Shown here piece by piece: positions 1 to 12,045 of a stretch of DNA of 35,526 nucleotides; positions within the stretch are counted from its first letter, which is position 1, and each line of letters begins with the position of its first letter. The position numbers were made by a program, and so were the translations under genes. Source of the DNA: Bacilli bacterium (GTDB lineage: Bacteria; Bacillota_I; Bacilli_A; RFN20; CAG-826); NCBI GenBank assembly GCA_017450325.1, contig JAFSVB010000131.1, positions 1-35,526 on the forward strand, given 5' to 3'. The notes under the pieces were generated by a model that saw only the letters and a program-made list of their open reading frames with translations, was not told where the DNA came from and made no database searches.

Positions 1-395
1 CGGCGCGCCCGGAAACGCGGAAAAGGGGGCAAAAGGCAAAAAAGCGTGACGTTTCGGCGGCAAAAAAGAATGACGGCGGGAAGCCTGTTCGCGACCCGCG
101 GCGTTTTCCTACCCACCGCTATAACTCATGCGTTTGTCCTGAAAAAGAGAAAAGACTACTTGACAAGACTTATCCTATTTCGTTATTTAGAGACCACACG
201 ATACGATGGGAGTTTCGCGAAATTGAAAATGCCTCCATAATGCAGTCGCTAAACGCACAAGGAAGCATGTCAAAGGTAGACATCAACGTTTTAGCATTGT
301 TCGGCATCGAAATCACCGAGCTGGAAAGCTTTTCCTTTTCCTTCGCATCTATGACAAAGGATGGACATAATGGAACAAACAAGGAGAATTTCGCC
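1..395. other. Upstream non-coding stretch before the first leader-peptide gene
   Basis: I see no convincing gene here. Open frames exist (for example 46-240 on the plus strand) but have no ribosome binding site and an unconvincing composition. A perfect -35-like TTGACA lies at 160-165, and weak -10-like A/T-rich sequence follows about 17 bases later (TTATTT at 183-188). This could be the promoter of the gene starting at 396, giving a leader of about 200 bases. The promoter call is weak because the -10 match is poor. Confidence 0.3.
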
Positions 396-665
396 ATGAG
401 AGAAGAGCTGCTCAAAGGTTTAACCGAAGAACAAATCGCTAAAATCAAAGCGTGCAAAAACCAAGAAGAGATCCTAAAAATTGCCAAAGAAGAAGGGATT
501 GAGCTTTCCGACGAACAACTAGAGGCTGTTTCCGGTGGCAGCTGCCATGATGGTGCCTGGTGCCCGTTTTGCTATCAACACAACACCCGTTTTCTTGATC
601 GAGAGGGCAACGTTATGATCTATATGTGCGATGATTGCCATAAAGAATTTAGAGCGTCTTTCTAA
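396..665 (+). CDS. Double-glycine leader peptide with zinc-ribbon core (copy 1)
   Basis: This 89-residue peptide has a helical, charged leader (residues 1-48) beginning MREELLKGL and ending in AVSGG, followed by a 41-residue core. The leader resembles Nif11-like/double-glycine leaders of ribosomally made peptides. The core carries CPFC and CDDC separated by 18 residues, the pattern of a zinc ribbon, plus an extra Cys right after the GG. The start was chosen at 396 because AAGGAG lies at 381-386; the open frame extends to 240, but that extension has no ribosome binding site. The leader is about 85% identical to the one at 1049 (41 of 48 residues), while the cores share only the Cys pairs. No maturation enzyme or C39-peptidase transporter is adjacent. 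A secreted, processed peptide is inferred; an intracellular zinc-binding protein is the alternative. Confidence 0.8.
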   Translation: MREELLKGLTEEQIAKIKACKNQEEILKIAKEEGIELSDEQLEAVSGGSCHDGAWCPFCYQHNTRFLDREGNVMIYMCDDCHKEFRASF

Positions 666-1048
666 TACAGCGTTACACAACGATAGACTTGCGTTTATGG
701 GCTGTGAGGGTAGTTGCCGGAGGTAATTTTCCTTCGCCTTGAAACTCATGCTTCCTAAGCGCAAAAACTTTATGACTGTGCTTTATACGAAGCTTTCGGC
801 TTGAAGCAGCATTTCCTTCAATTCGTTTTTCTCCATCATTTTTACCTCGTGAATTTTTTATACAGTTTGCCTTCACGAAGAAAACGCTCGATGGGTTTCC
901 GCTTTCTGAGAGGAACGGCACGAAAAAACGTTGGATGAAGACTCTTGCCAAACAAGGTGCGCGGATGGATTCATAGACCGTGCTATTTCGTCTATAGCGC
1001 ACATATAGAGCCGTTTGGTATCATATGAATAAAGAAAGGGGCCTCGCC
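666..1048. other. Intergenic region between leader-peptide genes 1 and 2
   Basis: No gene is supported. An 18-codon minus-strand frame (783-839) has a plausible GAGG ribosome site, and a TATAAA-like sequence lies upstream of it on the same strand. It is too short to call. Longer minus-strand frames here look random. No clear terminator follows the first peptide gene. Confidence 0.3.
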
Positions 1049-1324
1049 ATGAAAGAAGAACTTTTAAAAGGGCTATCCGAAGAGCAGATCGCCAAGATCA
1101 AAGACTGCAAATCCCAGGAGGAGATGCTGAAGCTCGCCAAAGAAGAGGGCATCGAGCTCACCGATGAGCAATTAGAGGCCGTCTCTGGCGGTAGCTGCCT
1201 CACCGATTTTGATTGCCCTAAGTGCAAAGGCACGATCAAAGGTAGCAGTTGCGACGATTATTACAATTACGTCTGCCCACATTGCGGATATAGATTTAAA
1301 AAGCCTCGCGGCGTCATGTCTTGA
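1049..1324 (+). CDS. Double-glycine leader peptide with zinc-ribbon core (copy 2)
   Basis: A 91-residue paralogue of the gene at 396. Residues 1-48 form the leader (MKEELLKGLSEEQ..., ending AVSGG). The 43-residue core has CPKC and CPHC separated by 16 residues, with one further Cys between them and one directly after the GG. The start at 1049 is preferred over the in-frame ATG at 1025 because the purine-rich AAAGAAAGGGG (1031-1041) sits 7 bases upstream and the protein then begins exactly like its paralogues. A strong terminator follows at 1363-1388, so the gene is probably not cotranscribed with the metallochaperone at 1692. The product is inferred to be either a secreted leader-cleaved peptide or a small zinc-binding protein. 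Confidence 0.8.
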   Translation: MKEELLKGLSEEQIAKIKDCKSQEEMLKLAKEEGIELTDEQLEAVSGGSCLTDFDCPKCKGTIKGSSCDDYYNYVCPHCGYRFKKPRGVMS

Positions 1325-1362
1325 TCGCTAGAGCGAGCAAAGCCCCCTCTACCGAGCGCTTG

Positions 1363-1388
1363 GCCATCCGTCAACGGGTGGCTTTTTT
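1363..1388 (+). terminator. Rho-independent terminator after leader-peptide gene 2
   Basis: GCCATCCG pairs with CGGGTGGC across the loop TCAA (8 bp including one G-T pair), directly followed by six T residues. Confidence 0.85.
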
Positions 1389-1640
1389 GAAATTTCCACT
1401 GCAAAACCCTGATCAATTTAATTTTATCCTCATTGTTTAGGACTTTGAGGAGTTTGCAGAAAAAGATGAATATCCCTTTGGTGGGAACTCGCGCTGCTTG
1501 ACTAATGGAGAATCTCGATACCGATACTTTTTGCCGTTTATGTGCTTCCCGAAACGTTTTTCTTTCTGTGACATCCTGGGGAAAGGGGCTCGAAGCGCGC
1601 CGAAGTGTTAAAAAGAATCAATTCACATTGAGATGTGGTT

Positions 1641-1668
1641 TTGAAGAAACAAAATATAGTGGTATAAA
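1641..1668 (+). promoter_or_regulatory. Candidate promoter of the zinc metallochaperone gene
   Basis: TTGAAG (1641-1646) and TATAAA (1663-1668) are separated by 16 bases. A purine-rich AAGAAGGA ribosome site follows just before the ATG at 1692. Confidence 0.5.
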
Positions 1669-1691
1669 TTCTATTCGAAGAAGGATTTGTT

Positions 1692-2933
1692 ATGACGAAA
1701 TTTAAAACGGTGCCCATCACCTTAATCACCGGCTATCTTGGAAGTGGAAAAACCACATTGATTAACCACATTTTAAAGAACGCTAAAAACCATAAAATCG
1801 CGGTCATCGTCAACGATATCGGCGAAGTCAATATCGACGCGGATTTGATCGCTAGCGGAGGCGTCGTCTCTGGACAAGACGATTCTTTGGTGCCTCTCTC
1901 CAACGGGTGCATTTGCTGCACGCTGAAGGAAGATCTCATTAAGCAATTAGCGGATCTGGTCAATTCCGGGAACTTTGACTATATCCTCATCGAAGCGTCC
2001 GGTATTTGCGAGCCCGTTCCTATCGCGCAGACCATTACTTATATGGAAGGCGAGTTTGAGAAGCAGGGACTACCCAAGTTCTATACATTGGATTCCATCA
2101 TCTCGGTCACCGATGCGTTAAGGCTATCCGACGAATTCGGCTGTGGAGAAGTGCTTAAAGAAACGGAAAGAGGGGAAGAGAACCTCGAAAACCTCGTCAT
2201 CCAACAATTGGAATTCTGCGACATTGTCTTGCTCAATAAAGTCAGCGAGATTTCTGCAGAGGAATTAAAGAAGGTGAAATTGGCAATTAAAGCCATCCAA
2301 CCGGAAGCGAAGATCATCGAATGCGATTATTGTGCTGTCGATATTGACGAACTGGTCGATAACCATCTATTCGACTTCGAAAAGGCCGCGGGAAGTGCCG
2401 CATGGATTCGCGAATTCGAAGATCGGGACAACGAAGTCGACCATAGTGAAGAGGAGCACCATCACGATGACGATGATGACGATGACGAAGAGGAACATGA
2501 ACACCACGAACACGGCCACCATCATCACCATCACCACGGCATAGAAAACGAAGAAGAAGGCACCGCTTTAGAATACAACATCAATACCTTTGTCTATTAC
2601 CGTAGAAAGCCCTTTGACAAACAACTGTTCACGAAATGGGTGGAAGAATCTCCGAAACATAAAATCATCCGAGCGAAAGGCATTTGCTATTTTGCTGACG
2701 ATGAAAAGAACGTCTATATTTATGAGAGCGCCGGCAGGCAAAGAACATTGGGCTGCACGGGAAAGTGGTTATCGGACCGTATCAGCAAACAACAAATTCA
2801 AAACCTCCTAAAAACCGATAAGAACTTCGCCCATGACTGGGATGACCAATATAAAGAAAAATTGATTAAACTGGTCTTTATCGGACAAAACCTCGATGAA
2901 GTGGCCATAAGGAACGAACTCGATCAAATCTAA
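1692..2933 (+). CDS. CobW/COG0523-family GTP-dependent zinc metallochaperone
   Basis: A 413-residue G3E GTPase. Visible parts: Walker A GYLGSGKT (14-21), the family metal motif CICC (73-76), a switch-like IEASGICEP (100-108), a guanine-specificity-like NKVS (182-185), and a CobW C-terminal domain (about 296-410). Between the domains lies a very acidic, His-rich linker (about 251-289) with runs of Asp, Glu and His, including seven His in a row. Family members of this type use GTP to deliver zinc to client enzymes, often under zinc starvation. The His/Asp-rich linker probably binds or buffers metal. Neighbours are two Cys-rich zinc-ribbon peptides upstream and a ferritin downstream, which fits a metal-handling locus. 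The metal is inferred; cobalt or nickel delivery is possible in related branches. Confidence 0.88.
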   Translation: MTKFKTVPITLITGYLGSGKTTLINHILKNAKNHKIAVIVNDIGEVNIDADLIASGGVVSGQDDSLVPLSNGCICCTLKEDLIKQLADLVNSGNFDYILIEASGICEPVPIAQTITYMEGEFEKQGLPKFYTLDSIISVTDALRLSDEFGCGEVLKETERGEENLENLVIQQLEFCDIVLLNKVSEISAEELKKVKLAIKAIQPEAKIIECDYCAVDIDELVDNHLFDFEKAAGSAAWIREFEDRDNEVDHSEEEHHHDDDDDDDEEEHEHHEHGHHHHHHHGIENEEEGTALEYNINTFVYYRRKPFDKQLFTKWVEESPKHKIIRAKGICYFADDEKNVYIYESAGRQRTLGCTGKWLSDRISKQQIQNLLKTDKNFAHDWDDQYKEKLIKLVFIGQNLDEVAIRNELDQI

Positions 2934-3164
2934 TCGAATCGCCGCAACGAATGGACTGAAAAAGCCGGCTAATCAAAAACCAAACGCTGAGGAAAGCAAC
3001 AAACGCTTGTCTCGGCCCTACAAACACGAATATCGAATCGATGAACGCTCTTTTACTATCGGCAATCCAGGGGCCGTCGTTAGGGGGTTCGTTTTGAAGA
3101 CAATAGAGGGCGGCGTATCTTGCCTTGAGGCCCTAGTCCGTATCGCATAGGGCGGGGGAGGCTT

Positions 3165-3170
3165 TATAAT
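3165..3170 (+). promoter_or_regulatory. -10 box of the ferritin gene
   Basis: A perfect TATAAT lies 31 bases before the ferritin ATG. No good -35 is seen at the expected distance. The purine-rich ribosome site AGAAAGGA is at 3182-3189. Confidence 0.5.
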
Positions 3171-3201
3171 AGTCGCTAACAAGAAAGGACATAAACGATT
3201 T

Positions 3202-3693
3202 ATGAATCAGCAATTACGCGACCTCATTGAAGATCAGATCAACAAAGAACTTTGGAGCGCCTATATTTATCTCGACATCGCCGAGTTCTATCAGGCCAAA
3301 GGACTCCATGGCCTCCACGCTTGGTTCGAGAAGCAGGCAAAGGAAGAAGTCGAACATGCGGAGAAATTCATGGAATTCCTTCATGACCGCGACGAATCCT
3401 TCCGCCTCAAGCCAATCGAAGCCCCGAATAAGGTCTATAAGGACCTCCGCGAGCCTCTTGCCTACCAGCTCGAGCACGAAAAACTCGTCACCTCCCTCAT
3501 CCTTGCTATCTATGGCAAAGCTAAGGAAGTCGGAGATCCAATCGTTTCCCACTTCATGGCGTGGTACGTTAACGAGCAGGTTGAAGAGGAAGGGCATTCC
3601 AAAGAACTGCTCGACCAATATGACCTCTTCGCCAAAGACGGCGGACTCGGCTTACACGAGTTCGACAAAGATTGCGGCAAGGCCGTCAAATAA
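3202..3693 (+). CDS. ftnA: Non-haem ferritin (FtnA-type iron storage)
   Basis: A 163-residue four-helix ferritin that oxidises Fe(II) and stores it as mineral inside a 24-subunit shell in the cytoplasm. The ferroxidase ligands can be read in order: E16 (KELWSAYIYLDIA), E49 and H52 (KEEVEHAEK), E93 (EHEKLV), and E125/E128 in NEQVEEE, with Tyr23 near the centre. The length and the C-terminal helix match prokaryotic FtnA. It lacks the haem-ligand Met context of bacterioferritin and the N-terminal pattern of Dps. It has its own -10 box and ends in a large structured terminator. The metal-chaperone gene upstream is in the same direction, 268 bases away. Confidence 0.95.
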   Translation: MNQQLRDLIEDQINKELWSAYIYLDIAEFYQAKGLHGLHAWFEKQAKEEVEHAEKFMEFLHDRDESFRLKPIEAPNKVYKDLREPLAYQLEHEKLVTSLILAIYGKAKEVGDPIVSHFMAWYVNEQVEEEGHSKELLDQYDLFAKDGGLGLHEFDKDCGKAVK

Positions 3694-3707
3694 TCGCGAG
3701 CATTAGC

Positions 3708-3773
3708 GGGGCTGTAATAGAACCTCAAGCCAATGATTGGCCAAAAGGTTAAAGTTATGGCCCCTTTCTTTTT
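3708..3773 (+). terminator. Long three-tier hairpin terminator after ferritin
   Basis: GGGGCTGTAA (3708-3717) pairs with TTATGGCCCC (3755-3764). Inside it AACCT pairs with AGGTT, and inside that GCCAA pairs with TTGGC around a TGA loop. TTTCTTTTT follows. It lies between the ferritin stop and the converging gene that ends at 3772. The outer arm is nearly the same as that of the hairpin at 11091. Confidence 0.8.
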
Positions 3774-4653
3774 ACATCCTGCTCGGATCCTCTTTCTTGA
3801 GATCCGGATCGACGGAGGAGGGCGGGAGCCCGCCTTCCCACGAGGAGCTTTCGCCCGCCCTTGCTAAAGCGAGCTTTCGGTGCTGCGACCCTTTGATCTC
3901 TTTGTAATCCTCCCAAGCCTCTTTACTATAAGATTCGAATTCCTTCTCGCGTTCCTTCTTATCCATCCCTTCGTGGTAAATCTCAAAGTGCTCTTTGGCT
4001 TTGGCGACGGTCTCCTCAGCCCAGTTGAGGACGCCATATTTGCCAAGGTAGATGTCGATGAGGTATCGGTGGCCTTCTTTGTAACCGCCATCGATGGCCT
4101 CCTCGATCTTCTTAATCGCCGCGAAATGCTCTTCGCCCATCGGGCCAATGTAGTTGAGCCCATTGCTGCAAAGCGGGCAGCGCTTGAAGTCCTCCAAACC
4201 AAGAAGCGCCAACGCGGAGGGGTCGTTCTTCGCGATTTCCTCGAGCTTCTTGCGCTGGCCTTTGCTCAGGGGGTCCCCATAAGGATCGAGGACGCTTTCC
4301 TTAACGCGATCGATGTCCAACTGGATTTCGGGTTCCACCCTTTTGACGCGGGCTCTAAACGCGATCCCGAGTTCCTTGCCTTGGGCGATGAAAAGGAGGA
4401 GGTAGCGCTTCGTCCCGATATAGAAAGAAAGCGAAAGAGGATGATTCGGCGAGAAACGAACGAAGTTCTGGGGTTCTTCCGGGGCGAATTGATAGCCATC
4501 CTCCCCGTCGGTGGAAAGGAGGAATCTCGTCCCTTCGTAGGGCTCGCCTTCCGGCAAGGAAACGAGGCCCGGCGCCTTAAAGAAATAGACGTCTCTTTCC
4601 TTATAGCCATAACCTTCGTCGCGGTAGATCTTGATGGCAATGTGCTTTTTCAT
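3772..4653 (-). CDS. Unknown protein with beta-rich N-terminus and helical C-terminal half
   Basis: A 293-residue protein that I do not recognise. The N-terminal part (1-115) alternates hydrophobic and charged residues like a beta domain. A CPLC pair (159-162) could bind metal together with unseen partners. Residues about 175-260 are helical, with EAIDGGYKEGHRYLIDIYLGKYG resembling a degenerate Sel1/TPR unit. The C-terminal tail is low in order. The start at 4653 was chosen over the ATG at 4731 because AGAGGAGG lies just upstream. It is downstream of the gene at 5505-4756 in the same direction (102-base gap) and divergent from the eleven-gene operon. Composition is GC-rich like its neighbours. 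The Sel1-like segment links it to the rightward operon, which also has Sel1 proteins. Confidence 0.75.
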   Translation of the reverse strand: MKKHIAIKIYRDEGYGYKERDVYFFKAPGLVSLPEGEPYEGTRFLLSTDGEDGYQFAPEEPQNFVRFSPNHPLSLSFYIGTKRYLLLFIAQGKELGIAFRARVKRVEPEIQLDIDRVKESVLDPYGDPLSKGQRKKLEEIAKNDPSALALLGLEDFKRCPLCSNGLNYIGPMGEEHFAAIKKIEEAIDGGYKEGHRYLIDIYLGKYGVLNWAEETVAKAKEHFEIYHEGMDKKEREKEFESYSKEAWEDYKEIKGSQHRKLALARAGESSSWEGGLPPSSVDPDLKKEDPSRM

Positions 4654-4755
4654 ATTGCTTCGTCCTCCTCTAGGAGTTTCCATCCCAATGTTAGCCCCGC
4701 GTCGCTTAAAGGGGAACGCGCCTAAGCGCATTGTCTCTTAGTAAGCGACTGGGTC

Positions 4756-5505
4756 TCAGTCTTCGTCGTCGATGTGGGGGTTTTGGGCCCAAGGGGGCCG
4801 GTTTTGGAGCAACTCTTTGCCCATGGCGATCCAGGGGATGCGGCTGTCCTCGTCGTTTTGATTGACCGCCTGGATCAGGCAATAGAAGCGGCCATCGTGG
4901 AACAAGGTGTCGAGATAGTACTTCTTGTCTTTCGAGGTGTAATGGAAGGGATCGGAATCCAGGTTCGCCCGCACCTTCTCGATGAAGGCTTTCCGCAGGG
5001 GCTCAAAATGCTCCATCTCGCTCTCTTCAATCTTGTAGCTCAGGGCGATGAGGCTTGCGTACGCCATGAAGAATACGGGGATCATCGGGTAGGGGAAGTC
5101 GGGGACGATGGGGTCGATCCGATGCTTCTCGAAGAAATAGATCGCCTCGTCTTCTTTGGAAGGTGGAGTCACTTTCCCTTCCTTTAAATAAAGGAATAGG
5201 GCCTCGATTTGATGCTGGGTGAGAGGCCGATAATCGCCCTTAGGGCCCATGCGGCAAAGAATCAGGTCGGAGGGGATCTCATCGTAGCCGGAAAGCCGGG
5301 CGGCGAGGGGCGTTCCGCCTTTTCCCCGATCGTCGCAGAAGCCGCCGATGGGGAAACCCAGGGTTTTCGTGAGGCGCTCGGTGGCGGCGGTGGAAACCGT
5401 ATAAAGGCGGGCGAAGCCGCTCGTTTCTTTCAGCGCGTTATAAGTGGAAAAGTCGATGGCGACCTTTTCGAAGTGGTCGCTGACCCGGATGGCGTTTTCC
5501 TTCAT
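4756..5505 (-). CDS. Unknown 249-residue cytoplasmic protein
   Basis: No family is recognised. The protein has no signal peptide. A stretch at about 140-160 (MIPVFFMAYASLIALSY) is hydrophobic but is probably a buried helix, because acidic helical sequence follows. The N-terminal third has a Gly/Asp-rich segment around GGFCDDRGKGGTPLAARLSG. The start is fixed by AGGAGAG just upstream of the ATG at 5505. It is the first gene of the leftward pair and shares a 169-base divergent intergenic region with the operon starting at 5675. The ribosome site sits in the loop of a GC-rich hairpin (see 5506-5529). Confidence 0.75.
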   Translation of the reverse strand: MKENAIRVSDHFEKVAIDFSTYNALKETSGFARLYTVSTAATERLTKTLGFPIGGFCDDRGKGGTPLAARLSGYDEIPSDLILCRMGPKGDYRPLTQHQIEALFLYLKEGKVTPPSKEDEAIYFFEKHRIDPIVPDFPYPMIPVFFMAYASLIALSYKIEESEMEHFEPLRKAFIEKVRANLDSDPFHYTSKDKKYYLDTLFHDGRFYCLIQAVNQNDEDSRIPWIAMGKELLQNRPPWAQNPHIDDED

Positions 5506-5529
5506 GGGGCTTCTCTCCTGGTTTGCCCC
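5506..5529 (-). promoter_or_regulatory. Hairpin enclosing the ribosome binding site of the 5505 gene
   Basis: On the minus strand GGGGC and GCCCC flank a 14-base loop that contains AGGAGAG. The right arm abuts the ATG. Such a fold could limit initiation; the effect is inferred. Confidence 0.45.
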
Positions 5530-5572
5530 ATTTTAATCTCGCGCCCATTTCTTTGGTGTCTTTTCGGCCGTT

Positions 5573-5593
5573 ATGTCGCCTCAAAAGCGACAT
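5573..5593. promoter_or_regulatory. Inverted repeat in the divergent intergenic region
   Basis: ATGTCGC and GCGACAT form a perfect 7-base inverted repeat with a 7-base centre, midway between two divergently transcribed operons. It is a candidate operator for a dimeric regulator or an untranslated hairpin. No proof of function is visible. Confidence 0.4.
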
Positions 5594-5674
5594 TTCCGAC
5601 CCTTTCCTATGGAAACGATGGGGACTCTTGTAAAAGCGAATAAATATATCGATTATGAAATTGGAGGGATGAAT

Positions 5675-5878
5675 ATGGGACACAATCCGAACCAAGAAGA
5701 CGCCGAGACGCTTTTCCGTAAGGGACTCGCCCTTTTTAACGGAGACGGCGTCGAAAAAGACGAACAAGAAGGCGCTTATCTGATCTCTTTGGCGGCCAAA
5801 AAAGGCCACGCCGAAGCGAAAGATTGGATCGACGACTACACCTTCGACGATAACGCCGGCGTTCAGGGAGCTTCCTGA
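5675..5878 (+). CDS. Single-unit Sel1-repeat protein
   Basis: A 67-residue protein, almost entirely one Sel1-like repeat: AETLFRKGLALFNGDGVEKD followed by EGAYLISLAAKKGHAEAK. Sel1 repeats are short helix pairs used for protein contacts. The start at 5675 is favoured because GGAGGG at 5663-5668 leaves a 6-base spacer, whereas the in-frame ATG at 5669 would abut the site. It is the first gene of the rightward operon and its stop overlaps the next start (TGATG). A single isolated repeat may act as an adaptor or pair with the larger Sel1 protein at 9840; this is inference. Confidence 0.75.
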   Translation: MGHNPNQEDAETLFRKGLALFNGDGVEKDEQEGAYLISLAAKKGHAEAKDWIDDYTFDDNAGVQGAS

Positions 5879-6105
5879 TGAAGAAGCGTCTCTGTCCCGA
5901 ATGCGGGCATTTCGCCTTGGAACTCGTTCTATCGAGCAAGCCAGGCGAAAAAGACCGCCTCGTCTGCGGACACTGCCACAAAGAGTTCCCCTATGAGGAG
6001 CCTACCGTCTCCTTAGACAGGGATTCCGTTCAGCGTTTCCCAAACCCGAACGACTTTGATGGCGAGACCGAATTAAGCAAAGCGATGCGGAGGAAAAAAC
6101 AATGA
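5878..6105 (+). CDS. Small zinc-ribbon protein
   Basis: A 75-residue protein with CPEC (6-9) and CGHC (30-33) separated by 20 residues, a treble-clef/zinc-ribbon pattern, then an acidic tail. It overlaps the genes on both sides (TGATG at the start, ATGA at the end), which signals translational coupling. The CGHCHKEF end is similar to CDDCHKEF in the leader-peptide core at 396; this may be convergence of the fold. Nucleic-acid or protein binding is possible, and no enzymatic motif is seen. Confidence 0.75.
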   Translation: MKKRLCPECGHFALELVLSSKPGEKDRLVCGHCHKEFPYEEPTVSLDRDSVQRFPNPNDFDGETELSKAMRRKKQ

Positions 6106-6665
6106 GCAAAGCCATTGGCATTCGTTTCGTTCCTTACGACAAGAAGAAGCATTTAACGAACCATTTCTTCGGCAAGCCCGTTTGCCCGAGGAGCATGGAA
6201 GGGGAGTTTGACGATCAAGTCCTCTTCTTAGGCATGATCCATCTCCCGGAGATCGCCCCCTTCGACAAAGAGAACCGGCTGCCCCATACGGGCTACCTTT
6301 ATTTCTTCCTCGACGTGAGCAACCCACGCCGGATGGGTCCGATCGTCCGCTACGTCGAAACCGAGCCCGAGGTCATCATCGATGACTACAACCACCTCTT
6401 GGCCTTAGAAGGCTTCTCCGGCATCGAGACCCCGCGGGGCATCGCGTTTGAGGAAGTGGAGGCGGACGCGGAAGGCTGCAAGCTCCTCGGCGTCCCCTGC
6501 GATTGGAATTACCCCGATCCCCCGAAGAGCGATCTCTTATTGACCCTTGACCACATCTCCGAAGAGTTGAATTTCCAGGTCCAGCTCAATGGCTTTACCT
6601 ACATCTTCTTCGGACCAAAAGGCGAGGAGTTCTCCGGCGTCTATGGCTATGGCGAATACGACTAA
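6102..6665 (+). CDS. YwqG-like (DUF1963) protein, first copy
   Basis: A 187-residue protein. The pattern LFLGMIHLPEIAPF...GYLYFFLDV followed by VRYVE, then a C-terminal SDLLLTLDHI and FTYIFFGPKG, matches the YwqG/DUF1963 fold. In that fold LLLQID and WG..G..YFFI are typical; here they are degenerate, with LTLDHI and TYIFFGP. The biochemical function of this family is not established. Its start overlaps the previous stop by 4 bases. It shares the short motif CKLLGVP with CKLLGAP in the second copy at 7249, although at a different place in the protein. Confidence 0.75.
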   Translation: MSKAIGIRFVPYDKKKHLTNHFFGKPVCPRSMEGEFDDQVLFLGMIHLPEIAPFDKENRLPHTGYLYFFLDVSNPRRMGPIVRYVETEPEVIIDDYNHLLALEGFSGIETPRGIAFEEVEADAEGCKLLGVPCDWNYPDPPKSDLLLTLDHISEELNFQVQLNGFTYIFFGPKGEEFSGVYGYGEYD

Positions 6666-6674
6666 GGAGCCTTT

Positions 6675-6956
6675 ATGAAACTCATCGTGCAAGGCTACAT
6701 CATCGTGCGAGGCCAGAAGGCTGATTTTTCCTCGGCCTATGATTCGCCTCTTTCGCTGATAAACAAAAAGACGACCACCGCGATCCAAGACGTCTGCTTC
6801 GTCGTGAATGAAGCGACGGCTTATGTCGTTTCGCTCGTCTTAGCGCGTGGCGAAACCCGGGATCTTATCAATCTTCGGGTCGGCGAAAACGTTGCCTACA
6901 CCCACAAAGGCAATGCCTATGAATACCTGCTTTCCTTCGGATTGGAGGGCGAATGA
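6675..6956 (+). CDS. Small beta-rich protein, paralogue 1 of 4
   Basis: A 93-residue protein of unknown function preceded by AAGGAG. It starts MKLIVQGYIIV, has a central hydrophobic strand pair (VCFVVNEATAYVVSLVL), and ends with a G-x-AYEYLLSFGLEGE strand. The same architecture (N-terminal MKL/MRI strand, central strand pair, then a gexxxv...G..y.y strand and acidic end) recurs in the genes at 6953, 8767 and 9054. A small beta-sandwich is inferred. There is no signal peptide. Its stop overlaps the next start. Confidence 0.7.
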   Translation: MKLIVQGYIIVRGQKADFSSAYDSPLSLINKKTTTAIQDVCFVVNEATAYVVSLVLARGETRDLINLRVGENVAYTHKGNAYEYLLSFGLEGE

Positions 6957-7237
6957 TGCGCATCCATTACGATGGCTTCTGCCGCTTGACCCGCGGTAGC
7001 GGCGCCCCTTTTGAGGACAATGGCGGCGCGCTCGACCTCGAAGTCGGGCAGACCGTCGATCTCCCTTGGCAGGACACGCATCTAGAAATCGCGGACGCCG
7101 ACGAAGAAGGCGCCTCCGTCAACCTCTACCTTGGCGAGAGTAAAAGCAGCGCCTACATCGCCTATAACGGCACGAAGACCTTCGCCTTGGAACGCGCCGC
7201 GCTCCATCTCGAAATCCAAATCAACGTCCAAGCATGA
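6953..7237 (+). CDS. Small beta-rich protein, paralogue 2 of 4
   Basis: A 94-residue protein overlapping its upstream neighbour at ATGATG. Either the ATG at 6953 or the one at 6956 could serve. Features shared with the other three small proteins: an N-terminal strand (MRIHYDGFCRL), a central SVNLYLGES strand followed by AYIAYNGTKTFAL, and a hydrophobic C-terminal strand (LHLEIQINV). No family is recognised. The size and layout suggest it arose by duplication within the operon, although sequence identity is low. Confidence 0.7.
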   Translation: MMRIHYDGFCRLTRGSGAPFEDNGGALDLEVGQTVDLPWQDTHLEIADADEEGASVNLYLGESKSSAYIAYNGTKTFALERAALHLEIQINVQA

Positions 7238-7248
7238 AAGGAGTGACT

Positions 7249-7833
7249 ATGGAACGCATCACTTACCGCTTAATCCGCGTGGAAAACGAGGAGAATCAAG
7301 ACCTCGACGCCTGCAAGCTTTTGGGCGCCCCCGTTTTGGCGAAGGGCCTTTTGGAAGCCCTCCACCTCAAAGACACCGAATACTTCATCGCCCAGATCAA
7401 CTGCGCCCAAGTCAAGAACCCGCCCTTCCCGGAGAAAGGCTGGCTCCATTTCTTCTTGGATGTCGAAAGCTTAAAACCCCGCGTCGTCTACACCGAGAAA
7501 GACCCGGCGGAGGTCATTGACGACATCAACGAACCCTTCGACGCCGACGCCTATGGCGACCCCACTTGCCTCAAGATGGAATTCCCGGGCGAAAAAGGCT
7601 CGTTCCTCTTCGGCGAGAATGACCCTGACATCGGCTTAGAGGGCAGCACCAGCACCGCTGGGAAGCTCACCCTTCTTCAAATCGACGCGCTCGCCCTTCC
7701 CCAAGGAAAGCAGAAGCCCCTCCGCTTCGGCGACTTCGGCTTCGGCGATGGCCATTGGGTCTTCTTAATCAAAGAGAAAGATCTCAAGAAGCGCGACTTC
7801 CGCCACGTCGAATTCGTGGAGGTTGAATCATGA
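7249..7833 (+). CDS. YwqG-like (DUF1963) protein, second copy
   Basis: A 194-residue protein with the clearest YwqG/DUF1963 pattern in the window: GWLHFFLDVESLKPRVVYTE in the middle, then LTLLQIDALALP, GDGHWVFLIKEKDLKKRDF and a final strand VEFVEV. The function of the family is unknown. The start at 7249 is set by AAAGGAG (7237-7243) rather than by the ATG at 7234, which overlaps the ribosome site. The stop overlaps the next start. The first copy (6102) lies two genes upstream, so the operon carries two diverged versions. Confidence 0.82.
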   Translation: MERITYRLIRVENEENQDLDACKLLGAPVLAKGLLEALHLKDTEYFIAQINCAQVKNPPFPEKGWLHFFLDVESLKPRVVYTEKDPAEVIDDINEPFDADAYGDPTCLKMEFPGEKGSFLFGENDPDIGLEGSTSTAGKLTLLQIDALALPQGKQKPLRFGDFGFGDGHWVFLIKEKDLKKRDFRHVEFVEVES

Positions 7834-8753
7834 GCCTGCCCCAGGGTGAGATGTTCGATCCCTTGGATCTTCGCAAGAAGGTTCTCGCCAAACGCAGCGA
7901 GTTTTCCTTCTTGCCTTCTTACCTAGGCCCCTTCGGCATGATGAAGGCCCTCCAAAGGGAGATGAACAAAGGGGCGGTCAACCCCAAGGTCAATTTCTAT
8001 GCGGTCGAGCTCTCCGAATATATCTCGTTCGGCAAGTCTTTCGTCATCGAGCAAAGCCAGGCGCATAGGAACGAAGAAGCCCCCTTTGTCATCGCCTTCG
8101 CCCGCGACGCGTTCAGTGACTCCGAATTCGAGGAAAGCGAAGCCCTCTTAGAGCATCTTCTTCTTTGCTTCAACGACGAGGAATTGATCCCCGCGTCCCG
8201 GGAAGCGTATCTATCGACCATCCTTCTTGGCTATATGCGGATCGGCCGTTATTTCAAAGGCCTCCGTTATGCCTACGCCTTAGAAGAAGCGGCCAGTGGC
8301 GGAGACTGCTACGAGATCCTTGGCCGCTACCTCTCGATGAACCTCAGCTTCCCGAAAGCGGCGGATGCCTATCTAAAAGGCGCCGAAGTCTTCTTAAAAG
8401 CCGGTAACCGTGCCAAAGCCGCGCGGCTCGCCTGTTCTGGCTATGCCCACCTTGCCCAGATCCCCGGGTCCTCGCTTCCCACGGAAGAAGAGATCAAGAA
8501 GAAATATGGCGAGGAAGCCCCCATCGTCCTCGCTTATCCTAAGCGCCTCGCCATCAAGCATGACCCCGTTGAATTCACCCCCGAATTCCAGAGGGTCTAC
8601 GCCCAAGCGATGGAAGAGGCCTACGACGAATTCGAGAAGCGGGGCAAGGCCCACGCCTTCGTCCTTTGGGAAACGATGGAAAAGGCGTTTGCCAAGCGCG
8701 GCATCGCCTGGAAAAACCCACAGAAAATGAACCCAAACGTAAAGTTTGATTAA
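7830..8753 (+). CDS. Unknown protein with helical-repeat (TPR-like) middle
   Basis: A 307-residue cytoplasmic protein that I do not recognise. Residues about 95-215 are helix pairs with TPR-like spacing, such as the Leu-rich EALLEHLLLCFNDEE, LSMNLSFPKAADAYLKGAEVF and RAKAARLACSGYAHL. The N-terminus has FSFLPSYLGPFGMMKALQ. The C-terminus is rich in Lys and aromatic residues. The start overlaps the preceding stop by 4 bases, so it is translationally coupled to the YwqG gene. A scaffold role fits the abundance of repeat proteins in this operon; this is inference. Confidence 0.72.
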   Translation: MSLPQGEMFDPLDLRKKVLAKRSEFSFLPSYLGPFGMMKALQREMNKGAVNPKVNFYAVELSEYISFGKSFVIEQSQAHRNEEAPFVIAFARDAFSDSEFEESEALLEHLLLCFNDEELIPASREAYLSTILLGYMRIGRYFKGLRYAYALEEAASGGDCYEILGRYLSMNLSFPKAADAYLKGAEVFLKAGNRAKAARLACSGYAHLAQIPGSSLPTEEEIKKKYGEEAPIVLAYPKRLAIKHDPVEFTPEFQRVYAQAMEEAYDEFEKRGKAHAFVLWETMEKAFAKRGIAWKNPQKMNPNVKFD

Positions 8754-8766
8754 GGAGGAAACAACC

Positions 8767-9051
8767 ATGAAACTGCGCATCATCGATTATGGCTGGGGCA
8801 TCGACCGCCGAAGCGGCGAGCGAAGCGAAAGCGTCTGCGCGGAAGTGAATTTCCACGTCAAGGAAGGAGCCCTCCCCCCGGTGGGGCCGGAGAAGAAGGT
8901 CTTCAAGATCACCAAGGTCGGCGAAGGCTCTGTTTCCGTTTGGCTCTCCGACAAACAGGGCGAAGCCACCATCTCGATCGGCAAGCCCTATGAATATCGC
9001 CCAATGAGCATCGATGGCGGCCATTATTACCGCTTCGAGCTGGAGGAATAA
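8767..9051 (+). CDS. Small beta-rich protein, paralogue 3 of 4
   Basis: A 94-residue protein starting MKLRIIDYGWGID. The start at 8767 is fixed by a strong AAGGAGG (8752-8758); the open frame extends to 8746 without support. The central VFKITKVGEGSVSVWLSD and the terminal G-KPYEYRPM...YYRFELEE match the strand layout of its three paralogues. Function unknown, no signal peptide. The next gene begins three bases after its stop. Confidence 0.7.
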   Translation: MKLRIIDYGWGIDRRSGERSESVCAEVNFHVKEGALPPVGPEKKVFKITKVGEGSVSVWLSDKQGEATISIGKPYEYRPMSIDGGHYYRFELEE

Positions 9052-9053
9052 CG

Positions 9054-9338
9054 ATGAAGCTCCACGTTCGCGCCATCTTCCTCCAAGACAAGAAGATGCA
9101 GGAAGCCTGCTTCGATCTCCCTTATGAGAATGGCGAGCAGCGCTTCCCCAAAGAAGCGCCCTTTGATCGGGCCTTCTACCTCGGCCCGGATTACGGCTAT
9201 TCGCTCGACGTCATCAAAATCGACGTCGAGAAACGTTCCTTGAACCTCGGCTATGACGAGACCGTCGTCTTAGACGAAGGCGGCCACGCCCATTGGCGGG
9301 GCGGGGGCGTGGAACTCGATTTCAACTTAAATGAGTAA
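9054..9338 (+). CDS. Small beta-rich protein, paralogue 4 of 4
   Basis: A 94-residue protein starting MKLHVRAIFLQDKK and ending VELDFNLNE. It has a middle strand pair, SLDVIKIDVEKRSLNLGYDE, comparable to the KITKVGEGSVSVWLSD of the gene before it. The stop overlaps the start of the following gene by 8 bases. Function unknown. The two neighbouring small genes (8767, 9054) look like a second tandem pair, mirroring the pair at 6675/6953. Confidence 0.7.
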   Translation: MKLHVRAIFLQDKKMQEACFDLPYENGEQRFPKEAPFDRAFYLGPDYGYSLDVIKIDVEKRSLNLGYDETVVLDEGGHAHWRGGGVELDFNLNE

Positions 9339-9840
9339 AGGCAAGAAGACAACGACATTTTGGAGCGAAGAAGAGCTCGCGAAGCTTCGCGAATTTGCCC
9401 TTTTCGGTCCGCCTTCGATCCTTAGGGATCGGAAACGTTTCCGCACGGTCCCCCTCTCCAAGCAGCAGGAGAACGACGCGATCGATTTTATCGCCGAGAC
9501 GATGGAACTTTCCTTCTCCGACGCCTTGCTAAGGATGATCGATCTCCGCGGCAAGACCGACCCCGAAGTCTATAAAGACGCGAAGATCGACCGCCGCGTG
9601 TTCTCAAAGCTTCGTTCGAGCCCGGCTTATCAGCCTTCCCGAAGCACCGCGATCCGCCTCTGCTTGGCGCTTCATCTCCTCCCCGCCGAGGCGATGGCCT
9701 TGCTCGAAAAAGCCGGCTTCTGCCTCTCCCGTTCCAAGCGGGAGGACATTGTCGTGCTCTATTGCCTGCAGAACCATATCTATGACGTCGACACCGTCAA
9801 CGATGCGTTGAAGAAACTCGGTTTGGAGGTCCTTTGCTGA
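9331..9840 (+). CDS. Helix-turn-helix-like protein of a stress-associated family
   Basis: A 169-residue protein. Residues about 50-72 form an amphipathic helix, and residues 85-130 (KIDRRVFSKLRSSPAYQPSR, then AIRLCLALHLLPAEAMALLEKAGF) look like a lambda-repressor-type HTH bundle. A conserved-looking end, CLSRSKREDIVVLYCL and YDVDTVNDALKKLG, follows. I recognise this as a recurring family in gut Firmicutes, often near stress or macrodomain genes, but its exact role is unknown to me. It could regulate this block, possibly via the inverted repeat at 5573, or act as a structural partner. The start overlaps the preceding stop by 8 bases and its stop overlaps the next start (TGATG). Confidence 0.75.
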   Translation: MSKGKKTTTFWSEEELAKLREFALFGPPSILRDRKRFRTVPLSKQQENDAIDFIAETMELSFSDALLRMIDLRGKTDPEVYKDAKIDRRVFSKLRSSPAYQPSRSTAIRLCLALHLLPAEAMALLEKAGFCLSRSKREDIVVLYCLQNHIYDVDTVNDALKKLGLEVLC

Positions 9841-11081
9841 TGGCGAAGAAACCCACGGCCAAAGACCTGCTTTTCCTCCTCGATGACCGCTTAGAGGTCA
9901 ACCTCAAACCGGGCGAAGGGGTCGAAAAGGCCAAAGAACGCCTTGAAAAACGCCTTAAAGAAGGCGAAGAAGACCTTGTCTTATTAAAGAGGGCGATCTC
10001 GATTTATGACGCCCTGCTTTCTTTGGGCATAGCGAGCAAAGAAGCCTTGGCCGCCAGCCTTCTCGAGCATGCGAAGAAACGCCAAGCCAAAGGGGAGATG
10101 GACTCGGCTTACGAAGCCCTGGAACTCGCCTCCCGTTTCGGCGGCGCGAGAGAAAAGATTGCCTTCGCCAAAACCTTGATAAGCGGAACCTTCGGCGTCT
10201 CCTCCCGCGAAGAGGGGCTCTCGATTCTTTCGGAACTCGCCGATTCCGGTTACCCCGAAGCCTCTTATCTCATCTACCTCCTTCATCAAACCTCGCCCGA
10301 TCTCGTCGAAGGGAAGCTGGCCAAAGAAGAATACCTAAGGGCCAGAGCCCTTGGCTATCCGCTCGCCCTTCAGCCCTTAAGCGAAGGCTTTGACGAACGC
10401 CCCTATACCGCGATCCTTTTGGAACGCTTCCATAAGGGCGAAGAGTCCTTGGCTTTCGCATTATCCAAACGCAAGGACCTTGACGAAGAAGCGAGAAGGA
10501 AATACCTCCTTCTTGCTTTAAAACAAGAAAACGCGGAGGCCGAAGAGGCTTATGCCGAGATGGTTAAAGAAGAGAAGAAAGAAGAAGGAAGGCGCTATTT
10601 CGAGCTCGCCGGGAACCATGGCAGGCCCAAATGCTACTTGAAGGCCGCTTCGCTATTGGAGGCCAGCCCATCCTTCTATCAAGGCGGAGAAGGGGAGAAA
10701 CAAAAAGAAGAGCTCCGCCTTTATCGCTTGGCCCAAGAGGCCAATGTCCCCGAGGCGCTGACGAAGATCGGCATTGCGACCCTCTTTGGCTACGGCTTAG
10801 AAAAAGAGCCCAAACAAGGCCTCGCCCTCTTGCGCTTGGCTTTAGCCAAGGGTGAGCGTTACGAAGCCCCATATTGGCTTGGCGAATGCCTTTATCGCGG
10901 GCTTGGCGCGAAGAAGAACCCCAAGCGGGGAACCGACTATTGGAAGATTGCCGCCAAAGAAGGGAACGCCCTCGCATTGGATGCGCTCGCCTCGATCTAT
11001 GAAAGCGGCGCGAAAGGCGTGAAGAAGAACCCGCGCCTCGCAGCCAAATATTCCTTCGCCAGCGGGAAGAACCGCGATTGA
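9840..11081 (+). CDS. Sel1/TPR-repeat protein
   Basis: A 413-residue cytoplasmic solenoid. The N-terminal half holds degenerate helix pairs (for example residues 85-105 and 120-150). The C-terminal part has three clear Sel1 repeats at about 304-339 (ALTKIGIATLFGYGLEKEPK), 341-376 (PYWLGECLYRGLGAKKNPKR) and 378-412 (ALASIYESGAKGVKKNPRLA). Sel1 proteins act as adaptors. The start is the ATG at 9840, inside the TGATG overlap with the previous stop and about 10 bases after GGAGG; an in-frame TTG at 9834 is less likely. It is the last gene of the operon and is followed by a hairpin at 11091. It may dock the single-repeat protein at 5675. Confidence 0.85.
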   Translation: MAKKPTAKDLLFLLDDRLEVNLKPGEGVEKAKERLEKRLKEGEEDLVLLKRAISIYDALLSLGIASKEALAASLLEHAKKRQAKGEMDSAYEALELASRFGGAREKIAFAKTLISGTFGVSSREEGLSILSELADSGYPEASYLIYLLHQTSPDLVEGKLAKEEYLRARALGYPLALQPLSEGFDERPYTAILLERFHKGEESLAFALSKRKDLDEEARRKYLLLALKQENAEAEEAYAEMVKEEKKEEGRRYFELAGNHGRPKCYLKAASLLEASPSFYQGGEGEKQKEELRLYRLAQEANVPEALTKIGIATLFGYGLEKEPKQGLALLRLALAKGERYEAPYWLGECLYRGLGAKKNPKRGTDYWKIAAKEGNALALDALASIYESGAKGVKKNPRLAAKYSFASGKNRD

Positions 11082-11090
11082 AAGAAAAAA

Positions 11091-11142
11091 GGGCTGTAAC
11101 AAAATCTCTCATTTGATTAGGGGGAATGATTACGGCCCTTTA
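11091..11142 (+). terminator. Hairpin at the end of the eleven-gene operon
   Basis: GGGCTGTAA (11091-11099) pairs with TTACGGCCC (11130-11138), 9 bp with one T-G pair, followed by a short TTTATAT. The arm sequence matches that of the hairpin at 3708. It acts either as a terminator or as a copy of a dispersed palindromic element. Confidence 0.6.
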
Positions 11143-11298
11143 TATGCCTACCACAAACTCTTTGCGCAGCGTCCACTAAATATGACAGGACGAAAAGCGG
11201 CGCAGCAACGAAAATGGCTGTCTAGTGTTCGGAGCAAAATAATAAAAGATACGGGGAATTTGCGGGGTTTTATGGATTTCGAAGGCCAAGAAATATTC

Positions 11299-12045
11299 TT
11301 AATGGACTGTTTTCTTCTTATAAAGGAAGCCCGTTAAGAAAAGCAGGGCGGAGAGGACTATAAAGATCAAAACAAAGAAGTTGATTTCTTCGGTCCAACG
11401 CAAAGCGATGAGCGGGACGTCAATGACGACGGCCAAGATCATGGGCCAAGGTGAGAAAAGGCCCGCATTATCGTGGAATAGGCGAATGAGCAAATAAGTG
11501 AACGCCCCCACCAACGCGATAGAGCCTATCGCTTCGAGGGCATGGAAGAAAACATGTGCCTCAATTTGGGATGGGTACATGACCGGAATCGCCATAGAAA
11601 AAGCGACGAGGTATGCGAAAGATAGCCAGAGGAGCGGTTTGTTGTCGCTGCTTGAGTGAATGGAGATCGTTTTGAGCAAAATCCCGAGAATCCAAATGCC
11701 ATAGGAAGCGAATTGAAGACCGGAAATGGTGTAATGGGTATGAACCATGCCCGAGAGCAAAAGGACGCCGCCGGCGAGGCAAAGGCTACCAAAATGCAGA
11801 TCCTCATTTGGCTTCACAAGCGCCTTTACGTTGGGGCGGCATTTCAAGATGAGCAAGACCATGAAGACGATGGCAGAAAGAAAAACGATGGAATAGACAT
11901 AACCATCGAACGCCGTGCCAAACAAATTCACTCCGCTACTTAAGGATAGGATGACGGAGATGGACCTTTCGGTAAGCAGAAGGACGAAGTAGAGGAAAAA
12001 GCAGAGATTGATGAGGTAGGCTATGGTTTTGGATTTGTTCTTCAT
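11299..12045 (-). CDS. Polytopic membrane protein of unknown function
   Basis: A 248-residue protein with about seven hydrophobic segments (for example YLINLCFFLYFVLLL near the N-terminus, IVFLSAIVFMVLLIL, LCLAGGVLLLSGMV and FFVLIFIVLSALLFL near the C-terminus) and a basic C-terminal KKK. No transport or enzymatic motif is visible. The start at 12045 follows AAAGGAG at a slightly long distance (about 12 bases). It is divergent from the regulator at 12190, with about 145 bases between them, so that regulator could act on it. Nothing more specific can be said. Confidence 0.75.
   Translation of the reverse strand: MKNKSKTIAYLINLCFFLYFVLLLTERSISVILSLSSGVNLFGTAFDGYVYSIVFLSAIVFMVLLILKCRPNVKALVKPNEDLHFGSLCLAGGVLLLSGMVHTHYTISGLQFASYGIWILGILLKTISIHSSSDNKPLLWLSFAYLVAFSMAIPVMYPSQIEAHVFFHALEAIGSIALVGAFTYLLIRLFHDNAGLFSPWPMILAVVIDVPLIALRWTEEINFFVLIFIVLSALLFLTGFLYKKKTVH

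What the first reader, a model, noticed from the sequence alone, without database searches (positions are those of the whole stretch)
3772..11081. Candidate undescribed two-operon system: YwqG + Sel1 + small beta proteins + HTH
Seen: eleven rightward genes joined by overlaps or gaps of under 15 bases, opposite two leftward unknowns, with shared GC-rich composition and flanking related hairpins. Contents: Sel1 proteins at both ends, two YwqG/DUF1963 proteins, a zinc ribbon, four paralogous 93-94-residue proteins, a helical repeat protein, and an HTH-like protein. No enzyme for a known pathway is present. Inference: a multi-subunit complex or conflict/stress system. The abundance of protein-contact repeats and duplicated small subunits suggests assembly of one large particle.
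Basis: partly seen in the sequence, partly recalled or inferred. Interest (0 to 1): 0.78.

Follow-up and report, generated by a model that had tools for sequence, protein, structure and literature searches.

The report
Undescribed YwqG-centred multi-protein operon
A block of 13 tightly packed genes, almost all of unknown function, is kept in the same order in five related bacteria, and its core proteins recur elsewhere beside ATPases and a protease of the kind seen in bacterial conflict systems, so it is probably an undescribed multi-protein sensing or defence assembly that nobody has yet tested.

Summary
Window 3772-11081 carries an 11-gene rightward operon and a divergent 2-gene unit. The rightward block recurs in order in four other genomes (whole layout in one; truncated or partly absent in the others). 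It is accessory: 4 of 31 genomes of the genus have it, at unrelated sites. The core is a duplicated YwqG/TYPP pair. One copy (w8) keeps the conserved pocket glutamine of the first repeat; the other (w5) has lost it in all five loci. Around the pair sit a TPR-like protein with a strict C-terminal motif (w9) and four small proteins, of which only w6 and w7 are demonstrable paralogs. Shorter relatives in other genera and families keep w2-YwqG-w9 but add NTPases: DUF4062 (TEP1-like) proteins, or a STAND-like protein plus an AAA+-AAA+-trypsin protease in a gene order shared by two families. The window's version lacks the NTPase and the protease. No known-system library or paper I searched describes it. 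The best reading is an adaptor/sensor complex of a conflict or stress system, controlled by an HTH protein whose domain elsewhere is joined to macro domains. That function rests on gene association only. The particle idea is untested.

The parts
3772..4653 (-). w1: beta-rich N-terminal domain plus helical C-terminus (about 293 aa from the ATG at 4653, which has a good ribosome-binding site)
   Evidence: No family match. N-terminal relatives in L017 and next to the core in L026.
4756..5505 (-). w2: 249 aa; conserved N-terminal domain of about 110 aa, start of the leftward unit
   Evidence: Orthologs in L017, L020, L022, L023, L026, L083, L135. AF2 pLDDT about 92 over residues 1-110, no PDB match.
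5506..5572 (.). 67-base divergent intergenic region; presumed promoter/operator region
   Evidence: Position between w2 and w3; no consensus promoter found.
5573..5878 (+). w3: small Sel1-repeat protein
   Evidence: PF08238 E=4.5e-5, below cut-off; orthologs in L017, L018, L020 and a longer one in L134.
5878..6105 (+). w4: zinc-ribbon protein with two CxxC pairs
   Evidence: Weak zinc-ribbon matches; orthologs in all five long loci.
6102..6665 (+). w5: YwqG/TYPP paralog that lost the pocket glutamines
   Evidence: DUF1963 18.3 bits. Repeat-1 Q is M in 5/5 orthologs; repeat-2 Q kept in 1/5.
6675..6956 (+). w6: 93-aa eight-stranded beta protein
   Evidence: AF2 pLDDT 94.5. Homologous to w7 and to the small beta protein of L083/L135.
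6953..7237 (+). w7: 94-aa paralog of w6
   Evidence: hhalign w6-w7 97.8%; orthologs in L017, L018, L020, L134.
7249..7833 (+). w8: YwqG/TYPP protein with pocket glutamine retained
   Evidence: DUF1963 48 bits against a cut-off of 23. Family profile matches YwqG structure 1PV5, E=9.7e-4. Repeat-1 Q 5/5, repeat-2 Q 3/5.
7830..8753 (+). w9: helical, probably TPR-like protein with C-terminal motif HDPVE...GI.W.SP..NP.V.FD
   Evidence: Alignments A1 and A4; weak matches of profile A4 to TPR chains.
8767..9051 (+). w10: 94-aa beta-type protein
   Evidence: Orthologs 45-54% identical in four other loci; homology to w6/w7 not shown.
9054..9338 (+). w11: 94-aa beta-type protein
   Evidence: Orthologs 22-40% identical in four other loci; homology to w6/w7 not shown.
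9331..9840 (+). w12: HTH protein; its HTH domain elsewhere is fused to macro domains or stands next to vWA genes
   Evidence: HTH_26 E=0.0031; tblastn to macro-domain proteins; contexts. Orthologs in L017 and L020.
9840..11081 (+). w13: Sel1-repeat protein (413 aa)
   Evidence: PF08238 43.5 bits over cut-off 30.7; ortholog in L017, E=1e-105.
3700..3775 (.). Left flanking hairpin with T tail, between convergent genes; probable bidirectional terminator
   Evidence: Fold -27.9 kcal/mol; same motif as the right hairpin.
11082..11150 (.). Right flanking hairpin, related to the left one
   Evidence: Fold -23.8 kcal/mol; 12-nt arms, 92% complementary.

Best explanation
The block is a real, accessory, co-inherited operon encoding a multi-protein assembly built on a duplicated YwqG (TYPP) pair. 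It is the long, NTPase-free derivative of an undescribed cassette whose core is YwqG + w9, often with w2 and a small beta protein. In short versions the same core stands with signalling NTPases (TEP1-like DUF4062 proteins, STAND-like proteins) and, in two or three loci, an AAA+-AAA+-trypsin protease. The likely mechanism: w8 uses its TYPP pocket to bind an exposed or extended peptide as ligand. w5, pocket lost, is a structural partner. w9 (TPR-like), the Sel1 proteins and the small beta proteins are the scaffold that turns binding into a signal. w12 sets expression from the divergent promoter. Where an NTPase/protease gene is present it would be the output; in the window's lineage the output is unknown. 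Shown: operon, conservation, accessory distribution, pocket-residue divergence, gene associations. Inferred: complex formation, ligand, regulation, conflict or stress role.
For: Conserved order in five loci with broadly concordant gene trees. Found in 4 of 31 genus genomes, at unrelated sites; absent downstream of the same ferritin gene in relative G008. Short versions with DUF4062 proteins beside or a few genes from YwqG in L023, L024, L025, L136. The DUF4062 region of one matches TEP1, E=7e-10, and is followed by a P-loop. Order w2-YwqG-w9-STAND-like-AAA/AAA/trypsin-x122-small beta in two families (L083, L135), partly in L084. Both Walker A motifs and the trypsin H and GNSG motifs are present. 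TYPP proteins have a deep conserved-Q pocket and were proposed to act in protein contacts or as chaperones (PMC4275035). w5/w8 pocket split. w12-type HTH fused to macro domains.
Against: The window's own block has no NTPase, protease or other enzyme, and its assembly has no STAND-like homologue (A10 profile only, draft assembly). Several short loci (L019, L022, L026) also lack an adjacent NTPase. Protein contacts and any phenotype are untested. No defence model matches the block, and no copies of the core were found in phages, plasmids or viral contigs, so a defence-island or mobile context is not shown.
Confidence: 0.45

Rival explanations
1. A stress or proteostasis module: the TYPP pair and TPR/Sel1 proteins act as chaperone-like assembly factors for a cellular target, unrelated to conflict, with the AAA+/trypsin versions being quality-control proteases.
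For: TYPP was proposed to be chaperone-like (PMC4275035). AAA+ plus trypsin-like protease is also a quality-control pairing.
Against: Patchy distribution (4 of 31 genomes in the genus) and repeated DUF4062/STAND-like partners fit conflict better than housekeeping.
Confidence: 0.3
2. A poly-immunity array: neighbouring genes each neutralise a different secreted toxin of rivals.
For: Small diverse proteins and Sel1 proteins in a row; accessory presence.
Against: Order and content are fixed across five diverged loci and no toxin gene is next to it. The standard polymorphic-toxin survey (PMC3482391) does not mention DUF1963 or YwqG.
Confidence: 0.1
3. A structural particle or a degraded prophage/secretion remnant.
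For: Several small beta proteins and many contact repeats.
Against: No PHROG match except the HTH and weak Sel1 matches. No viral structure match to w6 at E<=0.001. w9 not found in viral contigs.
Confidence: 0.07

Closest known systems
YwqG / DUF1963 / TYPP superfamily (PDB 1PV5; Burroughs and Aravind 2014, PMC4275035)
   Same: w5 and w8 belong to it by profile, orthology and the GxP motif; clustered multi-copy YwqG operons were noted there.
   Different: That survey, as read, does not report this cassette, its partners w2/w9/w6/w7/w10/w11, or NTPase neighbours. w5 lost the hallmark glutamine.
NTP-dependent conflict systems: iSTAND, trypsin and AAA+ ternary systems (Kaur et al. 2020, PMC7159879)
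   Same: Short relatives combine a P-loop-poor STAND-like protein, AAA+ and trypsin with adaptor proteins.
   Different: No MoxR-vWA pair recognised at the loci examined, and the window's version has no NTPase. TYPP is not mentioned in that paper.
Macro-domain/vWA-linked HTH proteins
   Same: The HTH domain of w12.
   Different: No macro or vWA gene in the block.

Membership tests
YwqG/DUF1963 (TYPP) | Family profile match | tested here: met
   w8 48 bits (cut-off 23); w5 18.3 bits, below cut-off but orthology clear; family profile matches 1PV5, E=9.7e-4.
YwqG/DUF1963 (TYPP) | Conserved pocket glutamine | tested here: inconclusive
   w8: repeat-1 Q 5/5, repeat-2 Q 3/5. w5: repeat-1 Q 0/5, repeat-2 Q 1/5. 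Short-type proteins: repeat-1 Q 11/11, repeat-2 Q 10/11.
NTP-dependent conflict systems (Kaur 2020) | AAA+/STAND NTPase encoded in the system | tested here: not met
   None in the window block. STAND-like profile A10 finds no homologue in the window's draft assembly; DUF4062-type and AAA/trypsin genes were not searched genome-wide. Present in several short relatives.
NTP-dependent conflict systems (Kaur 2020) | MoxR-vWA pair or GTPase core | tested here: not met
   No such gene in the window block; none recognised among the ORFs of relatives L083, L135, L136 (not every flanking ORF was scanned).
Known anti-phage defence systems (PADLOC 2.0) | Signature protein match | tested here: not met
   0 matches for the 9 block proteins scanned; the four small proteins were not scanned.
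Polymorphic-toxin immunity array | Linked toxin gene or variable gene content | tested here: not met
   Fixed order in five loci, no toxin domain in the block.
Macro/vWA-linked HTH systems | Macro or vWA gene adjacent | tested here: not met
   Only the HTH domain is shared.

The most novel reading that the evidence does not exclude
A new class of bacterial sensing or immune assembly in which a TYPP (YwqG) pair, one receptor-like with a pocket and one pocketless, acts with dedicated small beta subunits and a TPR-like protein, coupled in different lineages to a TEP1-like STAND NTPase, to an AAA+-trypsin protease, or to an output not yet seen.
Probability: 0.3. Interest if true: 0.8.

Novelty: new variant of a known kind. 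Interest (0 to 1): 0.58.

Why it matters
YwqG/DUF1963 is widespread in bacteria and related to the eukaryotic ribosome-biogenesis factor TSR4/PDCD2, yet its bacterial role is unknown. This cassette gives YwqG fixed partners and NTPase/protease neighbours, so its role becomes testable. It also adds several protein families with no model in Pfam, NCBIfam or PHROGs.

Tried and rejected
w2 as a DUF3846 relative (a resemblance from memory): hhalign 3.3%, not supported, though the DUF3846 profile was built from only three sequences. Fold matches: w6 best VIA Z 7.7 (rmsd 3.1, 86 aligned) and Foldseek E above 0.05 in PDB, i.e. an ordinary beta-sandwich arrangement with no assignable relative in PDB or BFVD; w2 best Z 3.7. 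w9 in plasmids and viral contigs: none. YwqG in phages or plasmids: none. The genome-contig scan with w8 found only one distant relative, L016. Horizontal transfer between G011 and G261 was considered from the gene trees, but the unrooted trees are also compatible with vertical descent. The small-beta fusion to w9 in L085/L136 is only weakly supported (best domain E=0.002).

Full report
Observation. Eleven rightward ORFs from 5573 to 11081 are joined by overlaps or gaps of at most 13 bases, and two leftward ORFs start just across a 67-base divergent gap (5506-5572). GC is 0.55 in the block against 0.46 and 0.50 in its flanks. The two flanking hairpins are related and fold well, but they sit at convergent gene junctions and look like bidirectional terminators. 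I call the genes w1 (3772-) to w13 (9840+), as listed under parts.

Conservation. All-against-all comparison with loci fetched from other genomes shows that the block is real. G005 (L017) has the complete arrangement, including the divergent w2/w1 unit. G011 (L020) has w3-w12 with w2 on the same strand. G012 (L018) has w3 to w11 without w6. G261 from another genus (L134) has w3 to w11 at a contig end. Some assignments rest on position and length (for instance L018 10722-11018 as w11). Gene trees of w5, w8, w9 and the concatenation agree; those of the short proteins are weakly resolved. A search with w9 found it in 4 of 31 genomes of the genus, at unrelated sites. In the relative G008, which carries the same ferritin gene (94% identical), the block is absent downstream of it. 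It is therefore an accessory unit inherited as a block.

Components. w8 is a clear YwqG/DUF1963 protein. w5 is its diverged paralog. The family profile matches the YwqG structure 1PV5. Burroughs and Aravind (PMC4275035) describe a deep pocket with a near-invariant glutamine in this TYPP domain and suggest protein contacts or a chaperone-like function. Here w8 keeps the repeat-1 glutamine in all five orthologs, whereas w5 has methionine there in all five and keeps the repeat-2 glutamine in only one. Of the short-type proteins in other genera, all 11 keep the repeat-1 and 10 the repeat-2 glutamine. This suggests duplication with division of labour, one pocketed and one structural copy (inference). 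w9 is helical with weak TPR-like matches and a strict C-terminal motif. w6 is predicted with high confidence as an eight-stranded beta protein (pLDDT 94.5) without an assignable structural relative. w6 and w7 are homologous to each other and to a small protein of the short systems. w12 contains an HTH domain found in the same bacterial order and on plasmids, fused to macro domains or next to vWA-like genes. The genome has a second, unlinked w12 paralog (L057).

The wider family. In other genera of the same order, and in another family of the class, w2-YwqG-w9 or YwqG-w9 recurs without the long set. Four such loci have a large DUF4062 protein directly beside or a few genes from YwqG (L023, L024, L025, L136). 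The DUF4062 region of one matches telomerase-associated protein 1 (E=7e-10) and is followed by a P-loop GRDGSGKS. The others mostly lack a canonical P-loop, and calling them STAND-like is my inference. L083 (G314) and L135 (G233), from different families, share the order w2, YwqG, w9, a 750-765 aa STAND-like protein, a 1103-1120 aa protein with two AAA+ domains and a trypsin domain, a 122-type protein and a small beta protein; L084 shows part of it. The trypsin domains keep the H and GNSG motifs and both AAA+ domains their Walker A motifs. The window's assembly has no homologue of the STAND-like protein by profile A10; the search did not cover the AAA/trypsin protein, and the assembly is a draft.

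Interpretation. The best-supported reading is that the block encodes the adaptor/sensor part of a conflict or stress system, in a lineage-specific long form without the NTPase. The inference from short relatives is guilt by association. Complex formation, ligand and output are not shown. Rivals are a proteostasis module, a poly-immunity array, and a structural particle; the last two fit poorly for the reasons given.

Known or new. PADLOC, PHROGs, NCBIfam and Pfam have no model for w1, w2, w9 or the small proteins where these were scanned. Open-access papers naming DUF1963 or YwqG do not describe this cassette as far as I searched; subscription papers were not searched. The closest conceptual relatives are the iSTAND/AAA+/trypsin conflict systems of Kaur et al. 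(PMC7159879). I rate it a new variant of a known kind, with a 0.3 chance that it is a class of its own.

Noticed in passing
L141 (G012:C66) 1-11400: A STAND-like homologue (691 aa) stands divergent to an AAA (ClpB-like), PP2C phosphatase and protein kinase gene cluster; possibly another conflict or signalling module.
   Followed up: partly
L020:4434-5369 and L134:10-291: A GGDEF (diguanylate cyclase) gene lies just downstream of the block in two of the five long loci, but not in the window.
   Followed up: partly
L057 (G000:C130) 3661-4146: A second, unlinked w12-like HTH protein (57% identical) in the window's own genome.
   Followed up: partly
window 1-146: 93% identical to a stretch 3' of the ferritin gene in relative G008 (L101:14621-14766), although the genes around it differ; perhaps a mobile repeat.
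   Followed up: no
window 1692-2933: CobW-type GTPase with a long His/Asp-rich loop, probably metal binding, next to a ferritin gene.
   Followed up: no
L017:8399-9157: In G005 an ORF downstream of w13 resembles w1 (E=3e-11), so w1-like parts occur at both ends of the block there.
   Followed up: no
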